From assembly GCF_036227605.1 (NCBI RefSeq), contig NZ_CP109487.1:7737001-7801000 (forward strand): DNA of 64,000 nt. The letters run 5' to 3'. Shown here piece by piece: positions 8,031 to 55,178 of the stretch. A model generated the notes under the pieces. That model was not told the origin of the DNA and did no database searches. It saw only the letters and a list, made by a program, of their open reading frames with translations. This DNA comes from Streptomyces sp. NBC_01439 (GTDB lineage: Bacteria; Actinomycetota; Actinomycetes; Streptomycetales; Streptomycetaceae). Within the stretch, counting starts at the first letter, position 1. Each line of letters starts with the position of its first letter. Made by a program: the position numbers and the translations under genes.

Positions 8031-8065
8031 GATTGCTCCCAGTCCGTTTCCCCGGACCTCTCGCC

Positions 8066-8099
8066 GAACCCGCCGTGCCCATTACTAGGCAACGGGCTC
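8066..8099 (-). ncRNA. Group II intron domain V
   Basis: Read on the minus strand, a 34-base element begins GAGCCCGTTGCC and ends GGCACGGCGGGTTC, folding into the two-part hairpin with internal bulge typical of domain V. It lies just downstream of the maturase stop, as expected. Confidence 0.75.
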
Positions 8100-8115
8100 T
8101 CCACGGTCTCTGCCG

Positions 8116-9597
8116 TCAGGTGGTTGCAGGGGTCCAGGGGGTGGGGATCGTGTTGCCGCGGTAGCGATACCGGGTGACCGGGATCGCGCTGATCTTCCGC
8201 AACTCGATCTCGCCCGCGCTGATCGGCAGCCATCGCCCGGTGGGGGTGGTGAGCCTTCTGCGGACGTCCGACCAGTTCCAGTGATGCCGCTCTTGCAGCA
8301 GCCGGATCACTCGCCACCAGACGAGGTTGTCCAGGTTGCTGAAGGTGCGCTTCGCAACGGCATGCCTGAAGTAGTTGGCCCATCCGTGGGTGACCCTGTT
8401 CAGATTGATCAGCACCACGGCCAGGTCCTGCTGCGACGTTCTGTGGGTGAGGGTACGGATCTTCGCCTTCACCGACCGGACGGGCCGGTCGGCGATGAAG
8501 GTGTAGACGTACCACTTGTCCGTTCCGCGCTTGCGGCGCCACTGGATGTGGAACCCCAGAAAGTCGAACCCCTCGCTCAGGTGCACCAGTTGGGTCTTGG
8601 CTTCCGAGAGCCGCAACCCGATCGGTGCGAGGACCTGGGCGATCTCCTCGCGCAGTGCCTCGGTGTCCTGTCTGGTCCCTTTGACCAGGACGACGAAGTC
8701 GTCTGCGTAGCGGACCAGCCGCCACGAGGGCAGGCCCTTGGCACTCCGCCGTTCGCGCCGACTGCTGGTGGACAGTTCCCCGTCCGGTTCCCATGCCCGG
8801 TGCAGGTGCTCATCGAGCACCGACAGGGCGATGTTCGCCAGGAGAGGGGAGATGATGCCCCCTTGCGGCGTGCCGGTGAAGGTCTCCTGCTGTTCACCGA
8901 GTTCCGTGAGGAGACCGGCCTTCAGGAACGCCTTCACCAGCGCCAGTACCCGCTTATCCTTGACCCTCATCCGGATACGGTCCATCAGCGCGACGTGGTC
9001 GATCTCGTCGAAGCACGCCGCGATGTCCGCGTCCAGCACCCACCGATAGCCGTGGGTGCCATAGAAGTGGATCTCGGCAATCGCGTCCTGTGCCCGCCGC
9101 TTGGGCCGGAACCCGTAGGAGACCGGCTTGAAGTCGGCCTCGAAGATCGGCTCCAGCACCAGCTTCAGCGCGGCCTGGACGACCCGGTCGGCGATCACGG
9201 GAATCCCCAGCCGCCGAACCTTCCCCGACCCGCCTGGTTTGGGAATCTTGCGTTCCCGCACCGGTAGCGGCCGGAACGAGCCCTGCCTGAGCTGGGCCCG
9301 TAGGTCGTCCAAGAATCCGGCGACCCCGAATCGCTCCTCAACGTCGGCGGCCGTCAGGCCGTCCACGCCGGGAGTGCGGGCTCCCCGGTTGCCGGCGACC
9401 CGGTCGAACGCCGCGATCAGCGTCGCCGGGTCGTGCACGAGGTTGAACAGATCATCGAACCGGCGGCCGGGATCGGCCGCCGCCCAACGGTGAAGCTTGG
9501 CCTGCATCTCCGATACCCGCTGGCGTGGACCCACCAGGTCCGCCTCCAGCAGAGCGCCGCTGTTCAGCGGTGCGTCTTTCGGCATTGCAGTCTCCAT
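8116..9597 (-). CDS. ltrA: Group II intron reverse transcriptase/maturase
   Basis: A 493-residue intron-encoded protein. Reverse-transcriptase blocks are intact: an N-terminal RT0-like region, GVDGLTAADVEERF, KVRRLGIPVIADRVVQAAL, YGFRPKRRAQDAI, DADIAACFDEIDH, GTPQGGIISPLLANI and the catalytic YADD (RLVRYADDFVVLV). A maturase X domain follows (NRVTHGWANYFRHAVAKRTF). There is no HNH endonuclease domain, so mobility probably uses replication intermediates or single-stranded targets. The protein would splice the host intron and reverse-transcribe it during mobility. It seems complete and possibly active. Confidence 0.92.
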   Translation of the reverse strand: METAMPKDAPLNSGALLEADLVGPRQRVSEMQAKLHRWAAADPGRRFDDLFNLVHDPATLIAAFDRVAGNRGARTPGVDGLTAADVEERFGVAGFLDDLRAQLRQGSFRPLPVRERKIPKPGGSGKVRRLGIPVIADRVVQAALKLVLEPIFEADFKPVSYGFRPKRRAQDAIAEIHFYGTHGYRWVLDADIAACFDEIDHVALMDRIRMRVKDKRVLALVKAFLKAGLLTELGEQQETFTGTPQGGIISPLLANIALSVLDEHLHRAWEPDGELSTSSRRERRSAKGLPSWRLVRYADDFVVLVKGTRQDTEALREEIAQVLAPIGLRLSEAKTQLVHLSEGFDFLGFHIQWRRKRGTDKWYVYTFIADRPVRSVKAKIRTLTHRTSQQDLAVVLINLNRVTHGWANYFRHAVAKRTFSNLDNLVWWRVIRLLQERHHWNWSDVRRRLTTPTGRWLPISAGEIELRKISAIPVTRYRYRGNTIPTPWTPATT

Positions 9598-40491: not shown

Positions 40492-40872
40492 CTACGATGC
40501 GGGCCGCAGCTCACGACCCTCAATGGAGTTTTCGAACTTGTCGGCATCCCCGATCGTCCCGTAGGTATCCGGTGAGGCGTCGGCATTGCTCCCCAGTCGG
40601 CGGTTGAAGGTGCTCGATGCGGAGAACTTGAGAACCACGTAGTCATCGACGTCGCTCTTGCCGAAGCGCACCTTGTGGCCCTTGTGGTCCTGCCGGTAGA
40701 AGCGGCCGAAGCTCGTGAGTACGACCGCCTCTCCGCAGCTCACCGCCCCAGTGAGTTCACCAAGCAACGACTCGTATACCTTGTTCACCACCGGGATGGG
40801 CAACTTGCTACGAGTCGCGACCCGCGAGATGAATTCGCGCTTATTGACACGCGGTGTCTTCGTCGTTTCCAT
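40492..40872 (-). CDS. HU/IHF-family nucleoid protein
   Basis: A 126-residue protein from ATG 40872; an earlier ATG seven codons upstream is less likely. The HU plan is clear: NKREFISRVATRSKLPIPVV (helices 1-2), LTGAVSCGEAVVLTSFGRFY (with SFGRF for the GFG(T/S)F turn), and a beta-arm ending LKFSASSTFNRRL, followed by a 25-residue acidic tail. HU bends and packs DNA. This plasmid copy may shape the relaxosome, origin or the plasmid's own promoters. A divergent backbone motif lies upstream. Confidence 0.85.
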   Translation of the reverse strand: METTKTPRVNKREFISRVATRSKLPIPVVNKVYESLLGELTGAVSCGEAVVLTSFGRFYRQDHKGHKVRFGKSDVDDYVVLKFSASSTFNRRLGSNADASPDTYGTIGDADKFENSIEGRELRPAS

Positions 40873-40909
40873 GTTTACACCCTGTCCTATCACTGTTCAT
40901 GACGCAGTT

Positions 40910-41411: not shown

Positions 41412-43145
41412 TCAGGTGGGCTGGTAGTCCTCGGAGTCGGCCTCGGCGTTCGGGCCGTTGTTCTGCGCGCCGGCCTCCTGCTCGGCCGACGGCCCCGTAG
41501 GGCGCGACCGCGGCTTGAGTCGCTGCTCCTCGAAGAAGGCCCCGGGGTCGTCGACCGCCGTCTGCAGTGTTTGCTGCCAGTTCTCTCCGAGGCTCCGCTT
41601 CAGCTGAGCCTCAAGATCCGGGTACTCCTCGTTCACTGCCTCCATCGCGTCGACATAGGCGTTGGAGTAGACCCGCTGCTGCTCCTCGGGTGGTAGACCG
41701 TCGATGTCCATGCTCGCGATCATCACCTCGGACTGGTCCAGGCGGTGCTGGAGCATGTCGGGCAGCCCGCTGGTGTCCAGACCCTGCTTCTGCGCCGCGA
41801 AGCCGACCAGGTAACCGAGCATGTTGCCCCCGTAGGCCTCTTGGTCGCCGCGGCCCAGCGCGTTGAGAAGCGAGGTCTTCATCGTCTCGGCGAGCTGAAC
41901 CTGGTGGGCGTCCGCGTCCATGGGTCGGCGCAGTGTGAACATCCCGTCCTCGGGCAGACGCTGGCCCAGCTGGTCGTCGAACTCCCCGCTCCAAACGGTG
42001 TGGACCCGGTCGGAGCCCGCGATCTGCTGCTCGTGTGCAGGAGCCTTGACGATCCGTCCGTGGGCCACGCCGTTGAACATCGTGCGCAGCTCGGGCTCGT
42101 ACTCCATCCGCTCGCCGATGATCATTCGGGCGCGCTGGACGACCTCCCGGCGCTCCAGGCCGTCTTCGCTCATCTGCTCGTGCAGCCGCTTGCGCATCGC
42201 CCGGTAGCCATCGCGGATCAGGCCAACGTCCGCGCCCGGCTCGCGCATCTTCCAGAAGGCGTTCTCCATGAGCGCGACCTCGGTCATGGCTGCCGAGTCC
42301 GGAGTGAACATCTCCCGGTGGCCGCGCTCACGGTGCTGCATGGCGTCGAAGCGCCTGCGCCACTTCTTCGTCAGGTGGTCACGCGGATCCGTGCTGCCGA
42401 TGAGGCGCTCGCGCCGGGCGTCGCTCGGCAGGTCCTTGAAGATCCTCTGCCGGTGCGCAATGTCGCTCTCGGCAAAAGCCACCATGCCACGGGCCCTCGT
42501 GTCGATGCGCTCCTGGACCTTGTCCTTGAGGGGTTGGAGGTAGCTGTCCATCTCCTTCTTGAAGTCCGGGGCGAGCATCCGCATCGTCATCACCATGCCG
42601 ACCGCCTGGATGACCGAGTTGGCATTCACTCCGCGCGAGAGCGACTTGAGACACGACTGCATCATCATCTGCATGTAGACGTGGTGCATGACGCCGAGGT
42701 CCTGCGTCCGCTCCTCGTCGTTGAAGCCGGGCACGAACAGCTTCGAGTCCCGCAGCGAGGCCATGTACTTCTCGCCGGCCAGCCGCGTCTCCGCCCGGAG
42801 CTTGAGCAGCTGCTCGCGCTGATCCACGCCCTCGCCCTCGGCTCGGTCGACGTCGATCCCGTGCACGCGCTCACGGTCGGCCATCCGCTTCCGGGTCTTC
42901 TCACCGAAGAACTCGCGGGCACGGTCCCGGAGCCGCTCGCGCCGGGCGCGCGCACCGTCTGCGTCCTGCGGCCCCGGATCGTCGACCACCTCGGCGTCGA
43001 TCGGCTCGTCCGAGCGCGAGTCCCAGCGGGCATAGGTGTTGCCTCGCGGCTCACGGGTCTGAAGCCGATCGTCGCCAACCGGAAGCACCTTGATCGCGCG
43101 CCGGCGGCCCGCGGGTCCTGTTCCCAGTTCCTTGGGCTGTGCCAT
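41412..43145 (-). CDS. 577-residue partner coupled to the polymerase-like gene
   Basis: ATG 43145 follows the stop of the polymerase-like gene by one base, so the two are almost surely translated together. The protein is largely helical and charged: a disordered N-terminus, a middle domain with a hydrophobic patch (YMQMMMQSCLKSLSRGVNAN, SVIQAVGMVMTMRMLAPDFK), and a long helical C-terminal half with acidic residues. I see no sigma-factor region, helix-turn-helix or enzyme motif. Tight coupling in stoichiometric fashion suggests a partner or specificity subunit of the polymerase-like protein, or a structural part of the conjugation system. Family unknown. Confidence 0.7.
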   Translation of the reverse strand: MAQPKELGTGPAGRRRAIKVLPVGDDRLQTREPRGNTYARWDSRSDEPIDAEVVDDPGPQDADGARARRERLRDRAREFFGEKTRKRMADRERVHGIDVDRAEGEGVDQREQLLKLRAETRLAGEKYMASLRDSKLFVPGFNDEERTQDLGVMHHVYMQMMMQSCLKSLSRGVNANSVIQAVGMVMTMRMLAPDFKKEMDSYLQPLKDKVQERIDTRARGMVAFAESDIAHRQRIFKDLPSDARRERLIGSTDPRDHLTKKWRRRFDAMQHRERGHREMFTPDSAAMTEVALMENAFWKMREPGADVGLIRDGYRAMRKRLHEQMSEDGLERREVVQRARMIIGERMEYEPELRTMFNGVAHGRIVKAPAHEQQIAGSDRVHTVWSGEFDDQLGQRLPEDGMFTLRRPMDADAHQVQLAETMKTSLLNALGRGDQEAYGGNMLGYLVGFAAQKQGLDTSGLPDMLQHRLDQSEVMIASMDIDGLPPEEQQRVYSNAYVDAMEAVNEEYPDLEAQLKRSLGENWQQTLQTAVDDPGAFFEEQRLKPRSRPTGPSAEQEAGAQNNGPNAEADSEDYQPT

Positions 43146-43146
43146 C

Positions 43147-46100
43147 TCAGTACCCCATCCCGTAGCCGTCGTCGTTGACCTCCGGCTGATCGATCTCGAT
43201 GCTCGGCGTGTAGACCCGGCGCGCCGCGCCCACGCCGACGGCATGCGCGGAGCGGCGATGCGAGCCGCGGGTGCGCGCGGCCTCCGCGTCCTGAGAGATC
43301 ACGTCGCGCTTGACGACCGAGTCATCGACAGCGATCACGGCGTTGTCCAGGCCGTGCTTCTCCGCGGAGCCCAGCTGATCGAGCTGCCGAGAAGTCTCCG
43401 CCCGAGCCTTCCGAGTCCCCGAGGACGCGAACTGCTCGTTCTTCTCGCCGTCGTAGACGTTCTCGCGGTTCTTGGCCGCCTCGACCAGATCGGCGAACGT
43501 GCCGCCGTAGGCCATCCGGTCCATCACGGTGCCCCGCAGCGACACATCTTCTTCCAAGTTGCGGATGAGCCCGGTCGTCGGGTCCGCCAGCGCACTGGCC
43601 ACGCGGGCCACGTACTCCGGGTTGACCGTGACTCCGAAGCCCTCCTTGGACTCGTAGAACTCGATGAACTGCTTCTCCCACTCCGCGGCCCTAGCCTGGA
43701 CGGGCTCACCGTCGACGAATGCCGTGTGCCACAGGCCCGGGCCGACGTGTTCGATGCTGCGGCCCCTCCAGAGATCGCGGCCGGGGCCCTGGAGCATCGC
43801 GTACTTGTGTCGGGCCTCGGCGGCGTCGTGCTTGGCCTGCAGGATCGCCTGGGTCACCGGGTAGGTGACCTCCAGGACGGCCTTGAGGTCCTCGCCGCGC
43901 AGCGCGCGCACGGCGCGCTGGCTGAACGAGCCGCCCAGGCCGGTGCCGTGGGACTTGATCGCCGTGGCGAACATCGAGGCTTCCTGGTCGGCCTGCGTGA
44001 TGCCGGGCGTGCCCTGCGCGTCGCCCAGGTTCCGGGCGTAGTCGGAGAGCTTCTTCTCGTTCCCCTTGGCGCCGGTCTCGACACAGACCTCGCGCACGCT
44101 CTGCAGGTGCGCCTCGCGATCCGAGAACGTCAGTGCCGCGCCGAACTCGCCACGCTGCGCCTGGCGGTACAGCCCGCTCAGCTCCTCCGTCACGACCTGC
44201 TGGGCGAGCTTGATGTCCTCCGGCGAATCCGAACCCGTGAGTGCCTGTAGCCGGAGCCGGTTCGCCTGGCTCCGCGAACCCTCCAACTCATGGGCCAATC
44301 CAGCGTCCTTGGACAGCGCGACCTGGGTGTCCAGCGACACCTGCATGGCCAGCGGGTGTGAACCATCGCCCTTGACCACTCCGGTGTCCAACAGGTTGGC
44401 CGGCACCGAGAGCTTCGCCAGGGCCTCGGCCTTGGCGGCATCGCTGTGCAGCTTCACCACGGCGACGGCGTCACCGTCGAAGTCGCCGTCGAAGCAAGCG
44501 TCCATCACCGGGTTGATCGCGGCGCCGGTGAGCCGGTCGTCGATCGCGACCCGCATGTAGCGCACGCCGGCGTCACGGAGCACCGGGTCACGCCACACCA
44601 GCGCGTGGTCGCCCTCGGCAAGCCCCAGCTGCTCAGCCTTGACCGAGCTGAGCGCAACCTGGTCGACGTTCAGTCGTGGGTCCGCGGTCCACACCATCGT
44701 CGCCGAGTCGGTGAGCCGTGAGGCCATCAGCCCGGTCTTGAAGATGTTGCTCTTGCCCGTCAGCACTCGCTTCTGGACGTCGGTCGTGATCCCTTCGAAG
44801 GCGCGCTGAGCGCGCGAGACCGATTCGCTCATGCCGCGACGCACCTCGGCGCGCTTCGCGGCGGACAGCCCCTGGCCGTCCAGCTGCTCGGCCATGTAGC
44901 GGTAGCGGCAAGCCTCCGCGAAGACGTCCTGGTAGCCGCGGGTGTAGTCGTGCGTGACGGAGGACCCGTCCTCGAACTCCTGACCACTGCGCAGATGCGA
45001 GGACATCACCGGCAGCTTCCACGAGCTCGCGCTCACCGTCTCGGTCTGCTCACCCGTCGGATACGTGAGCGGGAACGGGATCTCCATGTCGCCGCCGCGG
45101 TCGCCGATGAGGTGGCCGAAGGACTGGCGCATCGCCATGGTGTTCACTCCCGGGAGCTGGCCCGCCTTGCGCGGCTGCGTGCGCAGCAAGTCGGGCATCG
45201 GGATGAACCGACGCTCGGTACGCTCGTCGAGGCCCTCTGCCTGGCCGATCACGCGCAGCGTGCCGTCAGCGTCCATGTCCATGCCGGATACCAGCAGGTA
45301 CTCGCGCAGGCTCGACTCGGCCCCGCTGTTGTGGCCGTAGAACTCGCGCATGATCGCCGGGCAGTCCTGAGACTGCAGCGCCCAGGCCAGCTGAGAAGAG
45401 GCCTTACGGCCCTTGCCAGCACGCACCTGCTCCTCGTTGTAGATCTTCGTCTTCTCGTCGACGGCCATATGGGTGACCACGAAGCGCATCTCGCCCATGG
45501 CACTCGGCCGCAGTTCTCCGTTGGGCGAGCGTAGATCGGAGACGTTCCCGCTCATCAGCTCTTGCGCCGAGCCCGCGTTGCGCCGGGAGATGAGGCTGAA
45601 CGGACTCATCACCACGTCCAGACCCGGGTTGGCCCGGAACCAGTTGACCTCTTCGACGACGGCCTGCTGCTGCGCGTCGTGCAGAGGCATGTCCCGGTCG
45701 ACGATCAGCGAGATCACGCCCTTGTTGCCGTGCAGATCCGAGATCTTGTCGCCCACGACGAGATCGCGCTCCTGACCGCCGGCCCCGCGGATGCGGTGGC
45801 GCCCGGCGAACTCCTTCGACACCACGATCGGGTCATCAGCCGTCCAGCCGCCGAAGGTCATCAGCGCCGTCTTCGCCGGCGCGGTGACCTGAGAGGACTG
45901 CATGATCGTCGAGGCCGTCATCTGCTGCCGGTCGAACGGGTCGTACCGCAGCGTCTCGAGCTCGGGGAGAGCCATGAGCGGCGCACGCTGTCCGGCCACG
46001 CTCTCGTCGCCCGGCACGATCCGACCGTCGGTGTCGATCCGGGCCTGAGCGGTCAGGTACCGCACGATGCCCTGGTTGGTCGCGCCTCCGGTCATCACCG

Positions 46101-48702
46101 GGTCGAAGTAGCCGCTGGGCGCGGCCACGTTGTTCCGGTCCTTGCCGGTGAGCACCGTCATGTTCCGCCCGCCGGTGAGCCGCCAGGCGTCGAAGCGGTT
46201 GTCATCAGCCGGGTCGGTTCGGTCGCGCTGGGCCCTGTACTCGGCGTAGACCGTCGAGCCGGCCTTGATCTCGTTGGAGTAGCGCACACGGCGCGCCTCG
46301 GTCTGCAGGATCGCTGCCGTCCACTCCTCCAGGTGCGCCTTGATCTCGCCGGTGGACCCGTCCCGCTGGTACGTGGTGGCGCGCTCGATGAAGTCGATCG
46401 GGTGCTTGGTGCCGTACAGCTGTGAGTAGACCGTGTTGAGCGAGGAGGGCTCGCCGGTCTCGCTCCGCCAGGCGCTGAGGTCACCAGCGATCTGGTACTG
46501 GATGCGCTCGTGCATGAGCTGCTCGTAGCCGCGCAGGCGCGTGCGCTCCTCGACCGAGGTCGGAGCCTCGCCCGGAGTCTGGGCCGTGATCGTGGCCTCG
46601 TAGCCGGGCACGATGAGGGCGTTCTGCCCGCTGGCGAAGGCAGTGGTGATCTCGCCGTACTCGCCGACGTCGAAGACCTGGCCGATCTCACCCGAGATCG
46701 GAGTTCCCTTGCCGTCACGGCGCAGCTTCTCGCCGCTCCAGCGAATGACGCCGTGCTCGTCGACCAGGATCTCGGAGACCGTCGCCGCGTTGCGCTCGAT
46801 GCTCTCGCGCACGGTGACCCCGATACGCCGTATGAACGCAGATTCGTGATCGGCGATCGGCACGGAACGCTCGGCGTTGAAGCGGACGAGCCGGTCCTTG
46901 AACCGGGTCGTCTGGAAGGTCGAGCCCATTATCTCGTCGGGGGAGATCTCGCAACGACGAAGCGCGGAGGCGAGGTTGTCGAGGTTCGACCACTGCCCGG
47001 TGGGGCTGGTCATGTATCGCGCCACCCGCTCCGGGTTGAAGCGCTGATCGACCCACTCGCCGTCGACGTCATGGGGCAACGCTTCCCAGGTCCCGATGAG
47101 TTCGAAGGGAACGTCCTCAGCGTGCTGTCGGACCTTCTCGACGGCGGTGCCGCCGTAGACGAGGTTGCCCATATCGGGCGCCTCCTCGGCCTGCAGCTCG
47201 CCGATCTCGTCCAGCCGTTCCTGGTACATCTCTTCGGTCGCACCCGGGCGCAGCAGTTCGCTGCGCACACCCGTGAGCACGTCCCAGTACGAGCGCTGGA
47301 TGGCAGCGACCTCAGAGTCAGCCGAGTACTCCGGCGGTTCGATCGCATCCAGCTGTCCGCCGGTTCGCTCCAGCTCCGTCTCGGCACGAGCAATGAGATC
47401 CTCGACGCCAAGGGCTGCCTGCAGGTTCTCCCGAGCGCTCTCGACGGCGGTCTTCGCATAGGCCTCGGCCGGCTCGGTGTCGAGGAAGAACGCCGGCAGG
47501 GAGCGGTTCTTCGCGTCCCGGCGCAGCATCACCTTCGAGCCGGGCCGAGGGCCGGACTCACCGGGGGCCACGTAGTCGCCGACCACGAACATCGACTCAG
47601 GGGCAACGTGGTAGCTGTCGGGCACATCCACCACCGTGCCGTCACGGCCGCGCTCCCGGTGTGTCGCGCCGGTCTCGCCGGCGGCGCGCCCCGGCAGATC
47701 CGTACGCTCGACCCGACGTCCCTGGGCGAAGCGCAGTAGTTGGACGGCCTCCGCCGGCGAGGGAGAGTAGACCGCCATGCCGCCGGGAACCCGGTAGTTC
47801 GTCGAGTAGCGCAGCACGGTGCCGTTGTCGTATATCCGAGCTCCGGCGTACTCCTCCTGACGTGTGTCGGTGAGGCGGATCTCCATGCCGGTCCCGGCGA
47901 TCTTCGCCTTGATCTGACCTGGCTCGCGGTCGCGCACCACCTCGTAGGACACGCCCTGGGCCTTCAGCTCTTCGAGCAGTGCTGCCGAGCGCGCCACGGC
48001 GCGCCGGGACATGAAGCGGTTGCGGTCGACGCGGTTCGTCTGCGGGTCCCGGGCGCCGTCGATGACCCACTCGCGCACCTGGTCGTACTCCCGCTGGCTC
48101 ATCTTGTCCATCAGCGCGGTGAGTCCAGCGGCGTCGTCGTTCGTCATCGCGCGGCCCGCCTCGAACGGCTTGCCAGCGTCGTCGATGCGCCAGAGCACCA
48201 TGTTTCCGTGCCGCGGATCGGCCAGGGTCTCCACCTCGCCGCCGGCCACGCGTCCGATGGTCTCGTCCGGCAGGTACACCAGCGCGGTCCCGGCGCGCTT
48301 CACGGTCGCGCGTTCGGACCAGTCGGGGTCATAGGGGCTGATCGGCAGCCCGGCCGACTTCGGGTCGACCTGGGCACCGACACCGGTGACGCGGGTGAAC
48401 TCCCGCTGCGACTGCTGATAGCGCTCGTTCTGCGGGGAATGATCACCGAACTGCGGCTCGTAGCCGGACACCTTCTCCTCGAACGCCCGGTCGATGGCGG
48501 AGAGGCAGTCCGTGATGCCCAGCCGCGGGTCGGCCAGTGCGGTGCCCCGTTGACCGAGGATCTCGTCGACTCGGGCGCGGATCGCCTTGGCCTGGGAGAT
48601 CGGAACGACCTGTCCGGTCTGCGCCCGGGCCTGCTCGACTGCCTTGTAGTAGACGTACTCGTAGAAGTACCTGCGCAGTCCGCGCGCCTTCTTCATAGTC
48701 AA
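43147..48702 (-). CDS. Single-chain RNA polymerase-like protein (fused beta and beta-prime barrels)
   Basis: An 1851-residue protein. The beta-type half shows TALMTFGGWTADDPIVVSKE (Lys963; compare the GYNFEDAIIIS region), GDKISDLHGNKGVIS (Lys986 and Lys994, the same 8-residue spacing as the catalytic lysines 1065/1073 of E. coli beta), DMPLHDAQ, and SPFSLISRRNAGSAQELM (Asn1042; compare NPLGVPSRMNIGQILE). The beta-prime half shows GKSNIFKTGLMASRL, LVWRDPVLRDAGVRYMRV (compare NRAPTLHRLGIQAF) and DGDFDGDAVAV with Asp1407/1409/1411 for the metal-binding NADFDGD. Next comes TGAKGNEKKL (compare SGARGS). A weak trigger-loop-like TQAILQAKH (His1625) follows. The first 900 residues and last 220 are unrecognised. 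The order beta then beta-prime in one chain recalls phage YonO-type enzymes. I infer DNA-dependent RNA synthesis; substrate form (ssDNA or dsDNA) and promoter are unknown. Confidence 0.85.
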   Translation of the reverse strand: MTMKKARGLRRYFYEYVYYKAVEQARAQTGQVVPISQAKAIRARVDEILGQRGTALADPRLGITDCLSAIDRAFEEKVSGYEPQFGDHSPQNERYQQSQREFTRVTGVGAQVDPKSAGLPISPYDPDWSERATVKRAGTALVYLPDETIGRVAGGEVETLADPRHGNMVLWRIDDAGKPFEAGRAMTNDDAAGLTALMDKMSQREYDQVREWVIDGARDPQTNRVDRNRFMSRRAVARSAALLEELKAQGVSYEVVRDREPGQIKAKIAGTGMEIRLTDTRQEEYAGARIYDNGTVLRYSTNYRVPGGMAVYSPSPAEAVQLLRFAQGRRVERTDLPGRAAGETGATHRERGRDGTVVDVPDSYHVAPESMFVVGDYVAPGESGPRPGSKVMLRRDAKNRSLPAFFLDTEPAEAYAKTAVESARENLQAALGVEDLIARAETELERTGGQLDAIEPPEYSADSEVAAIQRSYWDVLTGVRSELLRPGATEEMYQERLDEIGELQAEEAPDMGNLVYGGTAVEKVRQHAEDVPFELIGTWEALPHDVDGEWVDQRFNPERVARYMTSPTGQWSNLDNLASALRRCEISPDEIMGSTFQTTRFKDRLVRFNAERSVPIADHESAFIRRIGVTVRESIERNAATVSEILVDEHGVIRWSGEKLRRDGKGTPISGEIGQVFDVGEYGEITTAFASGQNALIVPGYEATITAQTPGEAPTSVEERTRLRGYEQLMHERIQYQIAGDLSAWRSETGEPSSLNTVYSQLYGTKHPIDFIERATTYQRDGSTGEIKAHLEEWTAAILQTEARRVRYSNEIKAGSTVYAEYRAQRDRTDPADDNRFDAWRLTGGRNMTVLTGKDRNNVAAPSGYFDPVMTGGATNQGIVRYLTAQARIDTDGRIVPGDESVAGQRAPLMALPELETLRYDPFDRQQMTASTIMQSSQVTAPAKTALMTFGGWTADDPIVVSKEFAGRHRIRGAGGQERDLVVGDKISDLHGNKGVISLIVDRDMPLHDAQQQAVVEEVNWFRANPGLDVVMSPFSLISRRNAGSAQELMSGNVSDLRSPNGELRPSAMGEMRFVVTHMAVDEKTKIYNEEQVRAGKGRKASSQLAWALQSQDCPAIMREFYGHNSGAESSLREYLLVSGMDMDADGTLRVIGQAEGLDERTERRFIPMPDLLRTQPRKAGQLPGVNTMAMRQSFGHLIGDRGGDMEIPFPLTYPTGEQTETVSASSWKLPVMSSHLRSGQEFEDGSSVTHDYTRGYQDVFAEACRYRYMAEQLDGQGLSAAKRAEVRRGMSESVSRAQRAFEGITTDVQKRVLTGKSNIFKTGLMASRLTDSATMVWTADPRLNVDQVALSSVKAEQLGLAEGDHALVWRDPVLRDAGVRYMRVAIDDRLTGAAINPVMDACFDGDFDGDAVAVVKLHSDAAKAEALAKLSVPANLLDTGVVKGDGSHPLAMQVSLDTQVALSKDAGLAHELEGSRSQANRLRLQALTGSDSPEDIKLAQQVVTEELSGLYRQAQRGEFGAALTFSDREAHLQSVREVCVETGAKGNEKKLSDYARNLGDAQGTPGITQADQEASMFATAIKSHGTGLGGSFSQRAVRALRGEDLKAVLEVTYPVTQAILQAKHDAAEARHKYAMLQGPGRDLWRGRSIEHVGPGLWHTAFVDGEPVQARAAEWEKQFIEFYESKEGFGVTVNPEYVARVASALADPTTGLIRNLEEDVSLRGTVMDRMAYGGTFADLVEAAKNRENVYDGEKNEQFASSGTRKARAETSRQLDQLGSAEKHGLDNAVIAVDDSVVKRDVISQDAEAARTRGSHRRSAHAVGVGAARRVYTPSIEIDQPEVNDDGYGMGY

Positions 48703-48763: not shown

Positions 48764-48861
48764 GAGGCTATTTGTAAGGTGAGTGTCGAGGCTGTCTCCC
48801 ATAGGTGAGAGATGGCTTCGGCACTGGTTGTGATCCTTGTCCGCCCCTGAGTGGCCGTCAG

Positions 48862-51800
48862 TTACTTCGAGTTCATCTCGATGGCCATCGCCCTGTCGAA
48901 CCGGCCGTCGGCCAGCACCTCCCAGCTCGGCAGCGAGGCCAGGTACTGGTAGAAGGCCGAGTAGACCTTCACCGTCGCCAGCGACTTCAGGTCCTCCTCG
49001 GTGACGTCCTCCTCCGCGAACACCCGCGAGTCCTTGCCGTTCACGTGGCCGTTGATCCGGCGGGCGGCATTGGCGTATGCGTCCGAGCGGATCTGGCTGA
49101 TGTAGGTCTGAGACCCATCGGCGCTGCGCAGTTCGCCGTCGCCGCCGACCGAGAAGTGCTCGCGATCCTGCTCCAACTCGGTCTGCGCGGACTTGTAAGC
49201 CTCACCGATCTCGATGTCCAGGCTCTTGACCTTTGCCGAGCCGTCGGGATTGACCAGCATCTCCTTGCTGATCGTCCCCTCCGCGTAGAGCAGACGCTGC
49301 CGCTCGACGCTGACCGCCTGGCTCTCGGCGACTGCGACCCCGACCTCGACGTTCTCGATGAACTGGTCCTCGTCGAACATGCTCATCCCCTCGTACTCGT
49401 CGGGGTCGACGACCACCGGAGCGTTGGGGTCCTGGCCCTTGTCGACCGTGGTCATCGTCGTGATGACCTCCATGACCTCGTCGGCGTAGACATCCGGGTC
49501 CAGGCGCTCGACGTCGACCTCCTGGTAGCCGTAGATCTCCTTGTACTGCGCCTTCGCGTCCGCGGCCTTGACCGCCTGCCGCATGCGCTTCTCCAGCATC
49601 TTCACGAAGTCCGGCTGATTCATCCGCACGTCGAAGTCCATGGCACTGGACAGCGTTGGGATCGTCTGCAGCGAGTACGTGTGCCCCGGGTGCTTGATCG
49701 TGTTCCCCAGTAGCCGGAACGACATCGGCAGGATCGTCTGGTTGCGGTTCCAGATCGGCGCATCGCCGGCCCGGAAGACGATCGAGTTGCGCGGCGAGAG
49801 GAAGGCCATGTCGTTGTAGCTGATCAGCGGCTCTTCCTTGGTGCTCATCGTGTAGGAGACCCGGCCCTCGGTCTTGCCGCCGATGACCTTGTCGAGATCC
49901 TGGCTGATCTGCTTGCTGTCCCTGTACGACCGGTGAGTCTTGCCGCTCATCTTCTCCAGCGTCTCGATCATCGAGTCGTCCGTGGATTTCAAGAAGACGA
50001 TGTTCGAGGTGTTGCCCTGCACGATCTTGTCGACGCTCTCGCCGTAGACGTCGCGCAGTTGCTGCAGGGTCTGCAGGATGAGCGTGAACTGCTGCTCCTG
50101 GCCCAGGCCGATGGAGAGCATCGTCGCGAAGCCGTCGATGCCCTTGCCCTCCGACTGCAGGTTGCCGAGCTCGTCGAGCATGAACCGCGTGCGGTAGAGC
50201 GGCTTCTGGTTGGACTTCGTCATGTACGCCTGGTCGGCGCTCACGTCGAACAGCTGCTTGACCAAGATCAGGATCAGTTTCGCGTACTTCATCAGGTGCG
50301 GCGGAGTCACGAGGAACAGCGCCTTCGGGGACTCCGAGTAGCGGGACAGTTTCTGCGTGATCGCCCGTGCCTGATACGAGACCTTCTCCGGGTTGCCGCC
50401 GCCGGAGAAGTCGATCCGCGTGTCCGGGTAGAGCGTGTCCCCGGCCTGGAAGGACAGGATCTTCCCGTCCCGAGTGCCACCCTCACGCACCGGCTTCAGC
50501 TCACGCATCACGCCGTTCTTCACGATCTTCTTGCCAGTCACCGGCTCGACCACGTAGTGCCGGCCATTGAGCGAGACCTGGTGGGTCTTCGTGAAGCTGA
50601 AGTAGAAGGTGCGCACCAGCATCTTCGTCTGCGGGTTGACCAGCTCCAGCTTGAGCCAGGCTTCGTCGTCAGGGAACTTGCCCTTGAAGTTGTACCGGGC
50701 CCAACCTTCGCGGCCGACGATCTCCTCGTGCTCGAAGTCCTCGCCGAGGCTCTTGGTGAACATCGGGTCCGCGTAGGCCGACCACACGGCCTGCTGACCG
50801 ACGAGGTGGTCGCGCTTGACGTAGTTCGGCGCGAAGCGCACGCCGAGGCGGCGCGGGAAGCTCAGGCCGGCCAGGTCGGTGTTCTGCGACGGCTTGCCCG
50901 AGGTCAGCGTCGAGATCGTGGGGTCGGTGAAGAACGACATGGCGGTGATCGCGATGCCGTACACCGAAGCGAGCATCTTCTCCGCCCCGGCCATCGAGCG
51001 CAGCGCGTTGTGGGTGTTGCCCACCAACGTGCGCATGTTGTTGCGGGGCAGCTCCTCGCTCGCGTTGAAGTACAGGCTGAGCATGTCCTGATCGGCCTTG
51101 CCCTCCCACATGAAGGCCTGGGCCGCTGCCTTCTCCTGCGCCTCGGCCAGGGCGTCCCCGTTGTTCTCGAACTCGCCGGCCTTGACCCGCTTCTCCAGTT
51201 CGGCCTCAGGGTTCTTGATCTTCTTCGAGCTCATCTGCACGAAGAGCTGGTAGCAGTTGTAGAGCGTGACCTTGCCCCAGAGGTCATCGAGCTTCTGCTC
51301 GAGCAGCGCCGGGTCCATGCTCAGCGCGGCCGCGGCGCTGCGCAGCTCCCGTTCCTCCTCCAGGTAGAAGTCGATGAGTCCGTAGGCCGCGCGCTTGAAG
51401 GCGTTGTTGGCGGCGTTGGGCCAGACCGGGTCCTCGCCGGCGTCGAGCGGAAAGAAGATCCCGGCGATGTTCTCCACATAGAGCGCGCACTTGGTGAAGT
51501 TGCCCTCACGCGCTGCGTCGGCCGCCAGCCCCAGGGGGTTGTAGATGTCGGTCTTCATGGAGTTGATCAGATTGAACTGCACCGGTTCGAACCCACGTGT
51601 GACCAGCGGCACGTAGTTCTTCACCAACAGCTCGCCCTTGGGGTCGTTGATGACCATGTTCGAGGGCTTCTTCTCCCGCGACCACATGTCGATGACCGGC
51701 TCGATGTACGTCTGGCCCTTACCGGCTCGGGTAATGGCCAGCACCATGGTGTTCACCGGCGCGGTATCGACCACGTACGCCCCGGCAGGGCGCTGGACCT

Positions 51801-52908
51801 CGTACGCCGGGAACGTCCAGTCCTCCTTGATCAGGGCGGCGACGGTCTTGTACGTGTCCGATCCGAAGCCGAGTTTGTCCCGGTTCTTGCCGTCAGGGTT
51901 GTACGGGATGCGAGTGGTGTCGTACTTCTGCCGCAGGGTCTTGACATCGGGGAGCCCGGATGCCTCGAACAGCTCGTCGCCGAAGCCTTCGTCGATGATC
52001 GGCAGGGTCTGCGTCAGCGGACTGCCTTCGTCGTCGTCCATGACCTCGCCGGCGTAATAGGCGAGGTTGCCCTCCTCATCGATGACGTCCTTCTCGGCGC
52101 GCTGGGCGACCTCGACGGTGCCCAGACCCTTCTGCCTGAGCATCATGTGGCTGAGCATCGAGCTGACCTGCACGCTCGAGTGAGCGCCGGCGTCGGGGAA
52201 CCAGTCGTAGTTCTGCTGGATCTCTTCCGGCAGAGCGATGTGCTGGTCGTTCTGGTACTGGTTGATGTCGCTCGTGGTGTTCATCAGGTTCGCCGCGGCG
52301 ACCCTCCGCGAGAACCACGTGCCGATGATGAGGGCGACCATCAGACCCGAGCCGAGCGTGATGAAGAGCTTGAACCCCGAGACGTCGGCCAGCTGCTCTC
52401 CGACCGTCGTCGCGCTCTTCTCGGGCTCAGCCGGCCTGCCGGCGCTGAGCTCGTCGTCCTTTGCCGCGGTGTACCAGATGGGCACCGGAACAGCCTCAGC
52501 GCTGGGGTAACACTTCGCCTTCACGTCCGGGTTGCCGTCCTTGGTCAGGGGCCGGTAACACTTCACGACCGAGCCGCCCGCACCCGTCGCGGTGTCCTGA
52601 ACGTAGTACGCACTCGGCTTGCCGCTGCCGCTGCCGGACACGCTCGAGCCCACGGACACGCTCACCGACAGCACCGCCGCGGCGATGAGCGAGTAGAAGA
52701 CCCAGGCAACGACCGTCACCAGCACTCCGGCGATCACCGCGACGACGGTGCCCGGTCTGGTCGACCTCAGGGTCAGGAACTTGCTGCGGTCCAACTGCTG
52801 GTTGTCGTAGACGTCTCGGTTCGTCAGCGTCTCGACGGGCGTCCGCGCCGAGATCTTCTCCCAGCTGCTCGCCTTCGGCCGTGCTGCCTTCCGCCTGTTC
52901 GTGGCCAT
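48862..52908 (-). CDS. VirD4/TraG-like type IV coupling protein
   Basis: A 1348-residue ATPase from ATG 52908 (AAGGA upstream; an ATG at 52938 is possible). Two membrane helices lie near the N-terminus (about residues 37-67, then around 150-170). The Walker A is AITRAGKGQTYI (Lys397), with VINDPKGELLVKNYVPLV shortly after, as in TraG/VirD4. The Walker B is RFMLDELGNLQSEGKG (Asp912-Glu913), followed by the Gln-rich LILQTLQQLRDVYG sensor region. A large insertion lies between the two Walker motifs, and a long C-terminal extension of about 250 residues is present, making the protein roughly twice the usual size. It would bring the relaxase-DNA complex to the secretion channel and pump DNA. It ends 160 bases before the polymerase-like gene. 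Confidence 0.9.
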   Translation of the reverse strand: MATNRRKAARPKASSWEKISARTPVETLTNRDVYDNQQLDRSKFLTLRSTRPGTVVAVIAGVLVTVVAWVFYSLIAAAVLSVSVSVGSSVSGSGSGKPSAYYVQDTATGAGGSVVKCYRPLTKDGNPDVKAKCYPSAEAVPVPIWYTAAKDDELSAGRPAEPEKSATTVGEQLADVSGFKLFITLGSGLMVALIIGTWFSRRVAAANLMNTTSDINQYQNDQHIALPEEIQQNYDWFPDAGAHSSVQVSSMLSHMMLRQKGLGTVEVAQRAEKDVIDEEGNLAYYAGEVMDDDEGSPLTQTLPIIDEGFGDELFEASGLPDVKTLRQKYDTTRIPYNPDGKNRDKLGFGSDTYKTVAALIKEDWTFPAYEVQRPAGAYVVDTAPVNTMVLAITRAGKGQTYIEPVIDMWSREKKPSNMVINDPKGELLVKNYVPLVTRGFEPVQFNLINSMKTDIYNPLGLAADAAREGNFTKCALYVENIAGIFFPLDAGEDPVWPNAANNAFKRAAYGLIDFYLEEERELRSAAAALSMDPALLEQKLDDLWGKVTLYNCYQLFVQMSSKKIKNPEAELEKRVKAGEFENNGDALAEAQEKAAAQAFMWEGKADQDMLSLYFNASEELPRNNMRTLVGNTHNALRSMAGAEKMLASVYGIAITAMSFFTDPTISTLTSGKPSQNTDLAGLSFPRRLGVRFAPNYVKRDHLVGQQAVWSAYADPMFTKSLGEDFEHEEIVGREGWARYNFKGKFPDDEAWLKLELVNPQTKMLVRTFYFSFTKTHQVSLNGRHYVVEPVTGKKIVKNGVMRELKPVREGGTRDGKILSFQAGDTLYPDTRIDFSGGGNPEKVSYQARAITQKLSRYSESPKALFLVTPPHLMKYAKLILILVKQLFDVSADQAYMTKSNQKPLYRTRFMLDELGNLQSEGKGIDGFATMLSIGLGQEQQFTLILQTLQQLRDVYGESVDKIVQGNTSNIVFLKSTDDSMIETLEKMSGKTHRSYRDSKQISQDLDKVIGGKTEGRVSYTMSTKEEPLISYNDMAFLSPRNSIVFRAGDAPIWNRNQTILPMSFRLLGNTIKHPGHTYSLQTIPTLSSAMDFDVRMNQPDFVKMLEKRMRQAVKAADAKAQYKEIYGYQEVDVERLDPDVYADEVMEVITTMTTVDKGQDPNAPVVVDPDEYEGMSMFDEDQFIENVEVGVAVAESQAVSVERQRLLYAEGTISKEMLVNPDGSAKVKSLDIEIGEAYKSAQTELEQDREHFSVGGDGELRSADGSQTYISQIRSDAYANAARRINGHVNGKDSRVFAEEDVTEEDLKSLATVKVYSAFYQYLASLPSWEVLADGRFDRAMAIEMNSK

Positions 52909-53044
52909 CGTGATTCCTTGCTCTCGAGCCTCGCTCATTTCGCTGTCCCGCCGTCCAGTGCGCCCGGCTGCGCAGACGACGACGGCGCATGGGGAACGCG
53001 CCCCATGCGCCGTCAGATCACCCCGTCGGTCCTGACCGGATCGC

Positions 53045-55102
53045 TCAACGGATCGAGACCACCCCGACGATGAAGCCGGCCACGCCCATCAGGAGCGAGA
53101 GCGTGACGATCAAGACGATGAGGATCTTGTTCGAGCGGCTCTGCATCTCGGAAGCCCGCGCCAGCTCGTTGGCGTAGGACTCCTTGTCGGCCTGCATCTC
53201 CGTCAGGCGTGCTTCGTACCGCTTGGCCACCGAATCCTCGACCATCGACAGCTGCTTGAGCAGGTCGGTGACCCGCGTCACCTGGGAGTTGGTCTTCTCC
53301 TTCTCCAGGTTGAGGTTGTGCTGCCAGTCGGCGTCCCGAGTCGTCATCTGCGCGATGGCGTCCTTGCGGTTGCGTTCGAGCTCGTCCTCCATACGGCGGA
53401 TCCGGTCGGCGTGCTCAGAGCGCACCGACTCCAGGAGGTCCCGCTGTTCCCGGCGCAGGATGCCGATCTCGTCCGTGGTCCGCTGCTGCTCGGCCAGCGC
53501 CTCGAACTGGGCGATGTCGGCCTTGCGGTTGTCGTCGACGATTCGCTGGATCTCGGACTTCCACTGCCTCAGACGCTCTTCCTCGGCCGCCAGGTACTCC
53601 GACTGCCGCTCGGCCAGCACCTCGAATATCCGCGTCTGCCCGGTCTGCATCTTCAGCGTTGCGTCCGACCGCCGGACCCGCAGGATTTCCTGCTGGTTGT
53701 GCGCGTGGGTGTCCTCGATGTCCCGCTCGATCTCGGCGGTGGAGTCAATCTGCTCGCGCTCCATCCGCGAGCGGTTGCGCTCCTTGTACTGCAGCTCCGC
53801 CGAGAGCGCCGCCTGCTGGGCCACCTTGGTGGCCTGCGCCTCATAGTCCTTGGCGATCTCCGCCCGGCGGGCTCGGATCTTTTCCTCCCTCTCCGTCTGC
53901 CGCTGCTGGTGCTCAGCCTCAGCCGCGTCCTTCAACAGCTTGTACCGGGAGCCCTCGCGGTCGGTGGCCACCGCACGGATGACCTGCTCGGTGTGTGCCG
54001 ACATGAGGTTGACGTAGAGCGCACGCAGCTCGTCCTTGTGCGCGGAACGGAGCTGCATCAAGTCTGCGTTGGCCTGCCGGTTGAGCTGGGCGACCTGGTC
54101 CCCGAGCCACTCGGTCGCTCCCTCGGGCACGGCGATCTGTACGACCGGTGCGCCGATGGCGAAGGTCGCGTTGAACTCATCGAGCCGGACGTCCAGGTCC
54201 AGTTCCTCGGAGAGGAACCGGCGGGCGATGACGTCGCGCACCTGGGCCTGATCCGCCAGCAGCACAGCGTCTCCGGCCTCCTGGTGGTCGCCTTCGATGC
54301 CGTAGCCGGCGTCGGTCTCGTCGAAGCCCTCGTAGCCGGTCACCTCGTCGCCGTCGTAGTCCGGCTCTGGCTCGACCGAAGCGGTGCCCACGTCGTCCCC
54401 GTCGAACACGGGTGCGTCCACCCCTTCACCGTCGTCGACGACGTCGCTGAAACGCGGCTCGTCGTCCAGGCCCTCGCCAGCCCCCTCGTCACCGGGGATC
54501 TCATCGAAGATCGCATCCCCCTCGTCCTCCCAGAAGACCGCCGGGGCGGGGACAGCGGTCCCGGCCTCGGCGACCAGGCCGCTGTGCTCTTCCCACGCCT
54601 TCTTGCCCACGGCTTCTTCGAGGCTCGTGGTACCTGCAGCGACAAAACGCGCCTGTGCGAAGGTCGCATCGTTCACCAGATCGACGAGCAGATCGCCGCC
54701 GGGCTTCTGCCACACGACGGCCCAGGCGTAGGTGGCGCCGGTGAGCAGCGAGTACTCCTCCATGCGCGCGAGGGTCTCGTCGGTGGGGATGATGCCGAAG
54801 ACCTCCTCTTCGATCATCTCTGCCGTGGCCACCGTGCGGATCTGGTCGGAGCTGATGAGCTCGATGATCGAGCCCTTCGCCTCGTCCCGGCCGTGCCGCA
54901 TGCTCAAGCCGCCGATCTCGTCGGCAGCAAGCACGAGCATCACCCAGGCCGTGCCGCTGGGAAAGACGAACGGAGTGTTCGACCGCAGCAACTCGACCGC
55001 TGCCGGGATCGCCGTCTCCCTCACCACGGAGGCCAGAAGCTCGTGGGGCTTCTTCTTCCGTTCCTTCTTCTGGCGGACCGCCGCCGTTCCCAGAATGCCC
55101 AT
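53045..55102 (-). CDS. Tail-anchored coiled-coil protein
   Basis: A 685-residue protein from ATG 55102 (a frame opens earlier, but MGILGTAAVRQKKERKKK is the natural start). The N-terminal 190 residues look globular (FVFPSGTAWVMLVLAADEIG, YAWAVVWQKPGGDLLVDLV). A 120-residue very acidic linker follows, then about 350 residues of continuous coiled coil. The protein ends in one membrane helix (KILIVLIVTLSLLMGVAGFI) with almost nothing after it, so it is tail-anchored with the bulk in the cytoplasm. The position between the AAA+ ATPase and the coupling protein suggests a scaffold that links substrate-handling factors to the membrane channel. Family not recognised. Confidence 0.7.
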   Translation of the reverse strand: MGILGTAAVRQKKERKKKPHELLASVVRETAIPAAVELLRSNTPFVFPSGTAWVMLVLAADEIGGLSMRHGRDEAKGSIIELISSDQIRTVATAEMIEEEVFGIIPTDETLARMEEYSLLTGATYAWAVVWQKPGGDLLVDLVNDATFAQARFVAAGTTSLEEAVGKKAWEEHSGLVAEAGTAVPAPAVFWEDEGDAIFDEIPGDEGAGEGLDDEPRFSDVVDDGEGVDAPVFDGDDVGTASVEPEPDYDGDEVTGYEGFDETDAGYGIEGDHQEAGDAVLLADQAQVRDVIARRFLSEELDLDVRLDEFNATFAIGAPVVQIAVPEGATEWLGDQVAQLNRQANADLMQLRSAHKDELRALYVNLMSAHTEQVIRAVATDREGSRYKLLKDAAEAEHQQRQTEREEKIRARRAEIAKDYEAQATKVAQQAALSAELQYKERNRSRMEREQIDSTAEIERDIEDTHAHNQQEILRVRRSDATLKMQTGQTRIFEVLAERQSEYLAAEEERLRQWKSEIQRIVDDNRKADIAQFEALAEQQRTTDEIGILRREQRDLLESVRSEHADRIRRMEDELERNRKDAIAQMTTRDADWQHNLNLEKEKTNSQVTRVTDLLKQLSMVEDSVAKRYEARLTEMQADKESYANELARASEMQSRSNKILIVLIVTLSLLMGVAGFIVGVVSIR

Positions 55103-55178
55103 TGATGCCGATCCCCTCGCCAAAAGAACACAGTCCGCCTGGTTTATGAGCATCCTATCGTCGTCTTGTCAGAGTAGG

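What the first reader, a model, noticed from the sequence alone, without database searches (positions are those of the whole stretch)
43147..48702. Conjugation block encodes a single-chain homologue of the multisubunit RNA polymerase
Seen: one 1851-residue protein holds, in order, beta-type signatures (GDK...HGNKGVIS with Lys986/Lys994 at the 8-residue spacing of the catalytic lysines; the SRMNxGxxxE-like SRRNAGSAQE) and beta-prime-type signatures (an RxPxLxxxG-like segment, then DFDGD with Asp1407/1409/1411). Known: the RNA polymerase active site is built from two double-psi barrels with exactly these residues, and single-chain versions such as YonO of phage SPbeta exist. Inference: this plasmid-type element carries its own RNA polymerase of a distinct, larger lineage. 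I know of no described single-chain polymerase within a conjugation gene block.
Basis: partly seen in the sequence, partly recalled or inferred. Interest (0 to 1): 0.96.

Follow-up and report, generated by a model that had tools for sequence, protein, structure and literature searches.

The report
Conjugation elements' own one-piece RNA polymerase
A block of bacterial DNA-transfer genes carries a one-piece relative of the cell's transcription enzyme, with the key catalytic residues kept, that likely gives the travelling DNA its own RNA-making machine.

The parts
43147..48702 (-). single-chain RNA polymerase homologue, 1851 codons from TTG; likely start ATG at 48696 (1849 aa)
46843..48702 (-). 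N-terminal region, residues 1-620, no family found
   Evidence: no PDB sequence match with profile A3 at E 1; barely tested by fold
45448..46842 (-). beta-like part, residues 621 to 1084/1085
45709..45753 (-). GDKISDLHGNKGVIS, lysine motif (K986, K994)
   Evidence: K986 and K994 78 of 78; RpoB 900 best site, 0 of 200 shuffles as good
45559..45588 (-). SRRNAGSAQE motif (R1040)
   Evidence: R1040 78 of 78; RpoB 938 best site, 0 of 200
43483..45273 (-). beta-prime-like part, residues 1144-1740
44566..44592 (-). RDPVLRDAG (R1371, P1373)
   Evidence: 78 of 78 for R1371 and P1373; RpoC 497 best site, 2 of 200
44470..44484 (-). DFDGD, Asp triad D1407, D1409, D1411
   Evidence: 78 of 78; RpoC 530 best site, 0 of 200
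44029..44085 (-). TGAKGN segment, counterpart of beta-prime SGARGN
   Evidence: RpoC 799 best site, 0 of 200 shuffles; aligned
43894..43977 (-). bridge-helix counterpart, residues 1576-1603 (name of the helix recalled)
   Evidence: aligned to beta-prime TALKT..AGYLTRRLV; part of a predicted helix 1570-1622; motif scan alone not significant, 145 of 200 shuffles as good
48862..52938 (-). VirD4/TraG-type conjugative coupling protein, directly upstream
   Evidence: PF02534 5.9e-19, PF12696 1.7e-13
53045..55153 (-). protein of unknown family in the conserved block
   Evidence: no family; 32 of 32 loci L006-L037
55244..57670 (-). ClpB-like AAA ATPase (ORF start overlaps mobL, true start lower)
   Evidence: PF07724 7.2e-34; 32 of 32
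57444..59981 (-). MobL relaxase
   Evidence: PF18555 4e-109
41412..43145 (-). 577-residue protein of unknown family, ATG one base after the polymerase stop codon
   Evidence: matched in 32 of 32 loci L006-L037, and in L001, L002 and L038
41005..41370 (-). 121-residue protein of the block
   Evidence: 29 of 32 loci
40492..40893 (-). HU-like DNA-binding protein of the block
   Evidence: PF00216 2.4e-7; 29 of 32 loci

Best explanation
The gene encodes one chain whose middle and C-terminal parts match the RNA polymerase beta and beta-prime subunits, keep the Asp triad and paired lysines, and lie directly behind the conjugation coupling-protein gene; it likely works as the element's own sigma-independent RNA polymerase. 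Shown by sequence and prediction: the two halves in order in one chain, the conserved residues, the lack of room for a flap, the fixed setting. Inferred: that it makes RNA; that its template is the element's own DNA during the transfer cycle; that the long N-terminal region, or the 577-residue protein encoded right behind it, takes the place of sigma and flap in start-site choice or ties the enzyme to the transfer machinery.
For: Pfam matches to both barrels; profile match to beta-prime chains E 5.1e-20, running from the LPVLPxxLR segment through DFDGD to the bridge helix; host RpoB/RpoC matched half by half. Model of 560-1740: pLDDT 87, pTM 0.79; the 50 solved matches shown are RNA polymerase entries. 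Model of 1-1150: pLDDT 84, pTM 0.79; the 50 shown are beta or Rpb2. K986, K994, R925, R1040, R1371, D1407, D1409, D1411 identical in 78 of 78 aligned proteins, D957 in 76. Purifying selection: dN/dS 0.22-0.25 in 5 of 6 comparisons with close Streptomyces copies, 0.52 in the sixth. D957 to K986 is 29 residues against about 151 in the host RpoB (worked out); the flap, which binds sigma, is an insert in that barrel (PMC7824862, passages). VirD4 gene upstream on the same strand in 37 of 44 genome-contig loci, in L036 and L044 as a fragment; over the 41 fetched loci with both genes, 37 have at most 207 bases between VirD4 and the polymerase's open frame. ATPase, unknown protein, VirD4, polymerase and 577-residue protein occur together in 32 of 32 loci L006-L037. 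The same 4 of 150 genomes carry VirD4 and polymerase. Their divergence goes together over the window and 39 loci, Spearman 0.917, 0 of 2000 permutations. Relatives in 13 of 72,556 plasmids, none in 50,697 phage records. A carrier plasmid, Gordonia pGKT2, moved between genera in the laboratory (review PMC5640721, passages).
Against: No activity shown. The distance between the Asp triad and the lysines was not measured. No significant trigger-loop match. No repeated promoter-like motif found; by eye, against a recalled consensus, some genes including this one have host-like -10 hexamers, so host polymerase may serve them. In 7 of the 44 loci no VirD4 was seen (L038-L042, L046, L049), and two of these (L039, L041) have a DEAD helicase next door instead; several contigs are short. 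The link to VirD4 could be hitch-hiking within one module, and the Mantel test does not remove shared descent. The relaxase was seen only in the window, L001 and pGKT2, because the other loci stop short of it. No VirB4 ATPase was found by Pfam near the window.
Confidence: 0.68

Rival explanations
1. The polymerase is carried into the recipient with the relaxase-bound strand and starts RNA synthesis on the incoming single strand, as first transcripts or as primers for the second strand.
For: Close link to the coupling protein. No primase and no sigma domain among the 30 ORFs of the region scanned (ORFs chosen mechanically). No room for a flap. Among phage families matched by the 16 members, phrog_23188, called tape measure protein, is matched by 5, and BFVD rank 1 is a 'minor tail protein'; the tape-measure-fused P23-45 polymerase is proposed to act as phage DNA enters (PMC10770324, sections 11-12). 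RP4 TraC1 primase and pSa ArdC are reported to be transferred (PMC5512222, passages), and pED208 moves several proteins (PMC8406263, search listing).
Against: No transfer signal tested. PHROGs called RNA polymerase beta subunit are matched by more members (8, 7 and 5), and the window's protein itself does not match phrog_23188. Conjugative elements in print use primases for this step (PMC5512222, passages).
Confidence: 0.3
2. Donor-side late-gene polymerase: host polymerase makes it, and it then transcribes the transfer genes from its own promoters, as YonO does for SPbeta late genes.
For: YonO precedent (PMC5467207, passages). In the annotated plasmid copy L001, 12 of the 16 intervals between the block's genes exceed 30 bases, 11 of them 63-194 bases, room for own promoters.
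Against: No shared promoter motif found; the shared word TTCGATAG occurs once in the window and twice in L001.
Confidence: 0.3
3. It is a DNA polymerase or dedicated primase built on two barrels, like archaeal PolD, and copies the element.
For: Two-barrel enzymes include PolD (PMC7281927, passages).
Against: The rows shown in solved-structure searches by sequence and fold are RNA polymerases; lists are cut at 50 or 60 rows.
Confidence: 0.07
4. It is a catalytically dead relative that acts as decoy or regulator of host polymerase or as scaffold of the transfer complex.
For: Setting next to the coupling protein.
Against: Eight residues that correspond to active-site residues (correspondence partly recalled) are invariant in 78 of 78 over two phyla, which a dead enzyme would not be expected to keep.
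Confidence: 0.05

Closest known systems
Cellular multisubunit RNA polymerase beta and beta-prime (Pfam PF00562, PF00623)
   Different: One chain instead of two subunits; no room for the flap; trigger loop not established; 620-residue N-terminal region without known family; no second alpha gene: one PF01000 match in the whole genome
YonO of phage SPbeta and YonO-like proteins (PMC5467207, passages)
   Same: Single chain with both barrels, carried by a mobile element; lacks the flap insert, as YonO does (PMC7824862, passages)
   Different: YonO is about 100 kDa and its paper reports no similarity to cellular enzymes beyond a few residues; this one is about 200 kDa (estimated from length), its family profile reaches E 5e-20 to beta-prime, and it lies in conjugation modules. 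Direct comparison not made: SPbeta record not held
P23-45 gp96 tape-measure-fused RNA polymerase and gp64 (PMC10770324, sections 11-12)
   Same: Single-chain two-barrel enzymes of mobile DNA; 5 of 16 family members match a PHROG called tape measure protein
   Different: P23-45 enzymes are phage proteins and gp96 has no clamp; ours lies with a relaxase and coupling protein
[quoted passage not shown]
   Same: Named in print as single-chain two-barrel enzymes of plasmids or mobile elements; NCGL1702-like ones lack the flap insert too; either class may include this family
   Different: The passages read give no conjugation setting, function or sequence; supplements could not be read, so identity is open
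Polymerase of linear cytoplasmic plasmids of fungi and plants (PMC7281927, passages)
   Same: Fused large subunits carried by a selfish element
   Different: Eukaryotic cytoplasmic plasmids, no conjugation; the K. lactis enzyme is described as two-subunit (PMC6211774, search listing)

Membership tests
two-barrel RNA polymerase superfamily | beta-type and beta-prime-type catalytic domains both present | tested here: met
   PF00562 and PF00623 in 16 of 16 members at E 1 or better; window protein 4.4e-8 and 7.2e-5
two-barrel RNA polymerase superfamily | Asp triad and paired lysines conserved | tested here: met
   78 of 78
two-barrel RNA polymerase superfamily | fold of beta and beta-prime | tested here: met
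two-barrel RNA polymerase superfamily | Asp triad and lysines face one site | not testable with these tools
two-barrel RNA polymerase superfamily | makes RNA on a template | not testable with these tools
   needs purified protein
cellular multisubunit RNA polymerase | catalytic barrels on separate subunits | tested here: not met
   both motifs in one open frame in the window and aligned in one frame in the fetched loci (L049 and L050 fit poorly)
cellular multisubunit RNA polymerase | flap insert between the NYED-type and GDK-type motifs | tested here: not met
   29 residues against about 151 in the host RpoB
cellular multisubunit RNA polymerase | trigger loop after the bridge helix | tested here: inconclusive
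   best scan site for 1608-1627 is RpoC 1210, the trigger loop second; no hhalign match
YonO-like | specific sequence kinship to YonO | not tested
   SPbeta record not held
YonO-like | similarity to cellular enzymes limited to a few catalytic residues | tested here: not met
   family profile E 5.1e-20 over profile positions 657-1047; the single sequence reaches only 0.032 in PDB
phage tape-measure-fused RNA polymerase | kinship to tape-measure-fused enzymes | tested here: inconclusive
   phrog_23188 in 5 of 16 members, best 1.7e-4, not in the window's member; beta-subunit PHROGs in 8, 7 and 5
[quoted passage not shown]
   sequence not obtained; one paper in the library names it
conjugative element with MobL relaxase | MobL relaxase and VirD4-type coupling protein | tested here: met
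   PF18555 4e-109, PF02534 5.9e-19
conjugative element with MobL relaxase | VirB4-type ATPase | tested here: inconclusive
   PF19044 gives one sub-threshold hit elsewhere in the genome; a TraG-like P-loop protein follows the gene in L046

The most novel reading that the evidence does not exclude
Gram-positive conjugative elements ship their own one-piece RNA polymerase through the transfer channel together with the single strand, and it starts transcription or priming on that strand before host polymerase can act: the conjugation counterpart of the virion RNA polymerases that phages inject.
Probability: 0.28. Interest if true: 0.94.

Novelty: new variant of a known kind. Interest (0 to 1): 0.82.

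Why it matters
Conjugating DNA is generally taken to rely on host RNA polymerase or on primases for its first RNA in the new cell (general knowledge; primases also in PMC5512222, passages). A dedicated polymerase next to the coupling protein in two phyla makes a long-open question testable: how a single strand that enters a foreign cell is first read. It also adds a compact single-chain enzyme without a flap whose family profile reaches the cellular enzyme well beyond the catalytic residues, useful for asking which parts of RNA polymerase are needed. Relatives sit on Staphylococcus and Lactococcus plasmids as well as in Streptomyces and other actinobacteria.

Tried and rejected
Trigger loop: I first read PxTQxxLxxKH (1615-1625) as a trigger-loop motif by eye (note). 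A profile scan of 1608-1627 put the C-terminal SFQETT site of RpoC first (z 4.6, 8 of 200 shuffles as good) and the trigger loop second (z 4.0); hhalign of 1603-1720 found neither; the model makes 1570-1622 one long helix. I dropped the claim.

Own promoter: gaps between genes of the annotated plasmid copy, and alignments of the stretches upstream of the polymerase and HU genes in 12 Streptomyces elements, gave a shared TTCGATAG-like word, but it occurs once in the window and twice in L001. Rejected as a motif. The promoter scanner was not run.

Own alpha subunit: an rpoA gene lies about 26 kb away on the NBC_01454 plasmid, but the window's genome has a single PF01000 match, far from the window. 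Rejected.

Phage origin: no match to P0001 (E 1e-5) or L048 (E 0.01) in 50,697 phage records; in 2.9 million viral contigs 46 stretches had a pattern and 1 matched, weakly (L050); it and L049 align poorly. Both were left out of the tree and the host comparisons. L032 and L036 were also left out of the hhalign profile, L038 and L041 out of the tree.

N-terminal 620 residues: no sequence match in solved structures; the fold rows cover 621-1086 only, so this part is barely tested, not new. PolD, QDE-1, phi14:2 gp66 and the P23-45 enzymes are not among the rows shown; the lists are cut, so this says little.

VirD4 dN/dS is unusable for L001, L006 and L008 (ratios above 3): a stop codon ahead of the start lay in the span and shifted the codon register. 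In one search the protein behind the polymerase was translated in a wrong frame (15 stops), so that column is void; I redid it in the right frame. The phylum sample of 396 genomes has 13 matches at 1e-3, but only the own genome is a full copy; the other 12 are short matches inside frames of 1068-1419 residues at the two catalytic motifs, most likely RpoB and RpoC.

Papers: nine library searches listed no paper that I recognised as linking a single-chain two-barrel polymerase with a relaxase or coupling protein. A term search inside the MobL/pLS20 relaxase paper (PMC5313138) finds no mention of RNA polymerase, and inside the S. capitis plasmid paper (PMC4585213) only sigB in a table. The library is open-licence only; supplements could not be read; Iyer 2003 and the phi14:2 gp66 paper are not held.

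Full report
Observation. The ORF window:43147-48702:- encodes 1851 residues from a TTG; an ATG two codons later, 10 bases behind AGAAGG, is the likelier start and matches the one annotated in a 92%-identical plasmid copy. Pfam gives Rpb2 domain 6 at 977-1058 (E 4.4e-8, above cut-off) and Rpb1 domain 2 at 1361-1429 (E 7.2e-5, just below cut-off for the whole protein and just above for the core alone). NCBIfam, PHROGs and PDB sequence searches give RNA polymerase subunits, and one unnamed phage family, but weakly: best E 5.7e-5, 9.7e-4 and 0.032.

Family. A search of 5.8 billion proteins scored 7985 candidates and returned 503 at E 1e-3, of which 120 were listed; most have 1836-1938 residues, those with an organism name are actinobacterial, and some sources call them DNA-directed RNA polymerase or RNA polymerase Rpb2. 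Among 72,556 plasmids 13 match: one each of Streptomyces, Rhodococcus and Gordonia, five Staphylococcus and five Lactococcus. Among one genome for each of 84,980 species, 44 loci were found by pattern and tblastn, 32 of them L006-L037 actinobacterial, the rest mostly Lachnospiraceae and other Clostridia, L047-L049 with weak E-values. It is uncommon: in a phylum sample of 396 genomes only the own genome has a full copy, and 4 of 150 genomes of the genus have one. A midpoint-rooted core tree of 74 sequences (L038, L041, L049, L050 dropped) puts the actinobacterial loci L006-L037, L001-L003 and the window in one clade of 63 (support 0.95) with six Clostridia as neighbours; a Staphylococcus-Lactococcus pair, a Bifidobacteriaceae MAG and an Oscillospiraceae pair lie more deeply.

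Active site. In an alignment of 78 proteins, which includes the two poor fits L049 and L050, D985, K986, K994, R925, R1040, R1371, P1373 and D1407-F-D-G-D1411 are identical in 78 of 78, and D957 in 76. A scan of the host's own RpoB and RpoC with family columns picks the matching site first for the D957 (RpoB 744), K986/K994 (RpoB 900), SRxN (RpoB 938), RxPxL (RpoC 497), DFDGD (RpoC 530) and GARGN (RpoC 799) segments, with at most 2 of 200 shuffles as good. It also picks the expected site first for R925 and the bridge helix, but there 38 and 145 of 200 shuffles do as well, and it misses the VDEKT segment. The stronger evidence for the bridge helix is the profile alignment to beta-prime, E 5.1e-20, which runs through it. 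Which residues these are in E. coli is partly recalled.

Setting. Upstream on the same strand lie VirD4, a protein of unknown family, a ClpB-like ATPase and a MobL relaxase; downstream a 577-residue protein that starts one base after the polymerase's stop, a 121-residue protein and an HU-like protein. The ATPase, the unknown protein, VirD4, the polymerase and the 577-residue protein are all matched in 32 of 32 loci L006-L037, the 121-residue and HU-like proteins in 29 each; the loci end before the relaxase, which I saw in the window, L001 and pGKT2. The 577-residue protein also has a match in the clostridial L038 and in L002. VirD4 is seen on the same strand upstream in 37 of the 44 genome-contig loci, in L036 and L044 as a fragment; in the 7 others (L038-L042, L046, L049) it was not seen, some contigs being under 13 kb, and L046 has a TraG-like P-loop protein next door. 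Over the 41 fetched loci with both genes, 37 have at most 207 bases between VirD4 and the polymerase's open frame; the four others are L004, L032, L036 and L044. In 150 genomes of the genus the four with this VirD4 (E 1e-20) are the four with the polymerase. Divergence of the two proteins goes together over the window and 39 loci (Spearman 0.917). The polymerase changes faster: L047 has 53% identity in VirD4 but 22% in the polymerase.

Function. pGKT2 of Gordonia, which carries a copy with VirD4, an AAA ATPase and MobL, moved in the laboratory to Gordonia polyisoprenivorans, Rhodococcus jostii and Nocardia (review PMC5640721, passages, citing Jung 2011). No VirB4 was found by Pfam around the window, so the transfer channel itself is not described here. 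No primase or sigma domain turned up in the 30 ORFs scanned. I give: homologue 0.98; makes RNA 0.85; serves the element's own DNA in the transfer cycle about 0.68; enters the recipient about 0.28. These are judgements, not computed values. The 577-residue protein, constant and directly behind the polymerase gene, is a candidate partner; this is an idea, not tested.

What is known. YonO is a proven single-chain enzyme of a phage that reads its late genes, and its paper states that similarity to cellular enzymes is limited to a few residues (PMC5467207, passages). [quoted passage not shown] The survey of proteins carried by conjugative elements lists primases for them and N4-type polymerases for phages only (PMC5512222, passages). 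So the kind is known; what is new here, as far as the nine searches go, is the conjugation setting, the spread over two phyla and the closeness of the family profile to the cellular enzyme.

Noticed in passing
L001:9135-13430; VirD4 of L009, L010, L019, perhaps L037, and of genomes G480 and G516: The ClpB-like ATPase of L001 (1431 aa) has LAGLIDADG and homing-endonuclease matches, and VirD4 of several relatives is split into two matches with about 1 kb of open frame between them or has only a partial match in a frame of over 1700 codons. They look like inteins in conjugation ATPases.
   Followed up: partly
window:41412-43145: The 577-residue protein behind the polymerase is matched in 32 of 32 actinobacterial loci and in clostridial L038 but has no Pfam family in its L001 copy.
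   Followed up: partly
L001:19866-19911, L006, L007, L008, L009, L023, L028, L031, L060; window about 48780-48830: An exact inverted repeat CAGTGCCGAGG...CCTCGGCACTG lies between VirD4 and the polymerase gene in 9 of the 63 loci then held; in the window it is decayed and the stretch folds no better than shuffles. Terminator or binding site.
   Followed up: partly
L047:4169-12493, L048:5102-13513: Oscillospiraceae versions of about 2800 codons, far larger, next to a VirD4 still 51-53% identical to the window's.
   Followed up: no
NZ_CP109461.1 96401-97426 (L057:8402-9427): A plasmid-borne rpoA gene about 26 kb from the polymerase gene; not present in the window's element.
   Followed up: partly
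window:8116-9597: Group II intron maturase (RVT_1, GIIM); its frame overlaps the end of a DDE_3 transposase frame at 7454-8794.
   Followed up: no
window:19659-20945: Weak match to actin-like proteins (MreB-like_C, ALP_N), possibly a plasmid-type segregation protein.
   Followed up: no
L054:9257-11893: An 878-residue frame with a BacA/UppP domain only in its C-terminal third; not checked whether the frame start is real.
   Followed up: no
L042: A Bifidobacteriaceae MAG has the polymerase with a UvrD helicase and a ClpB-like ATPase on the opposite strand and no VirD4 seen.
   Followed up: no
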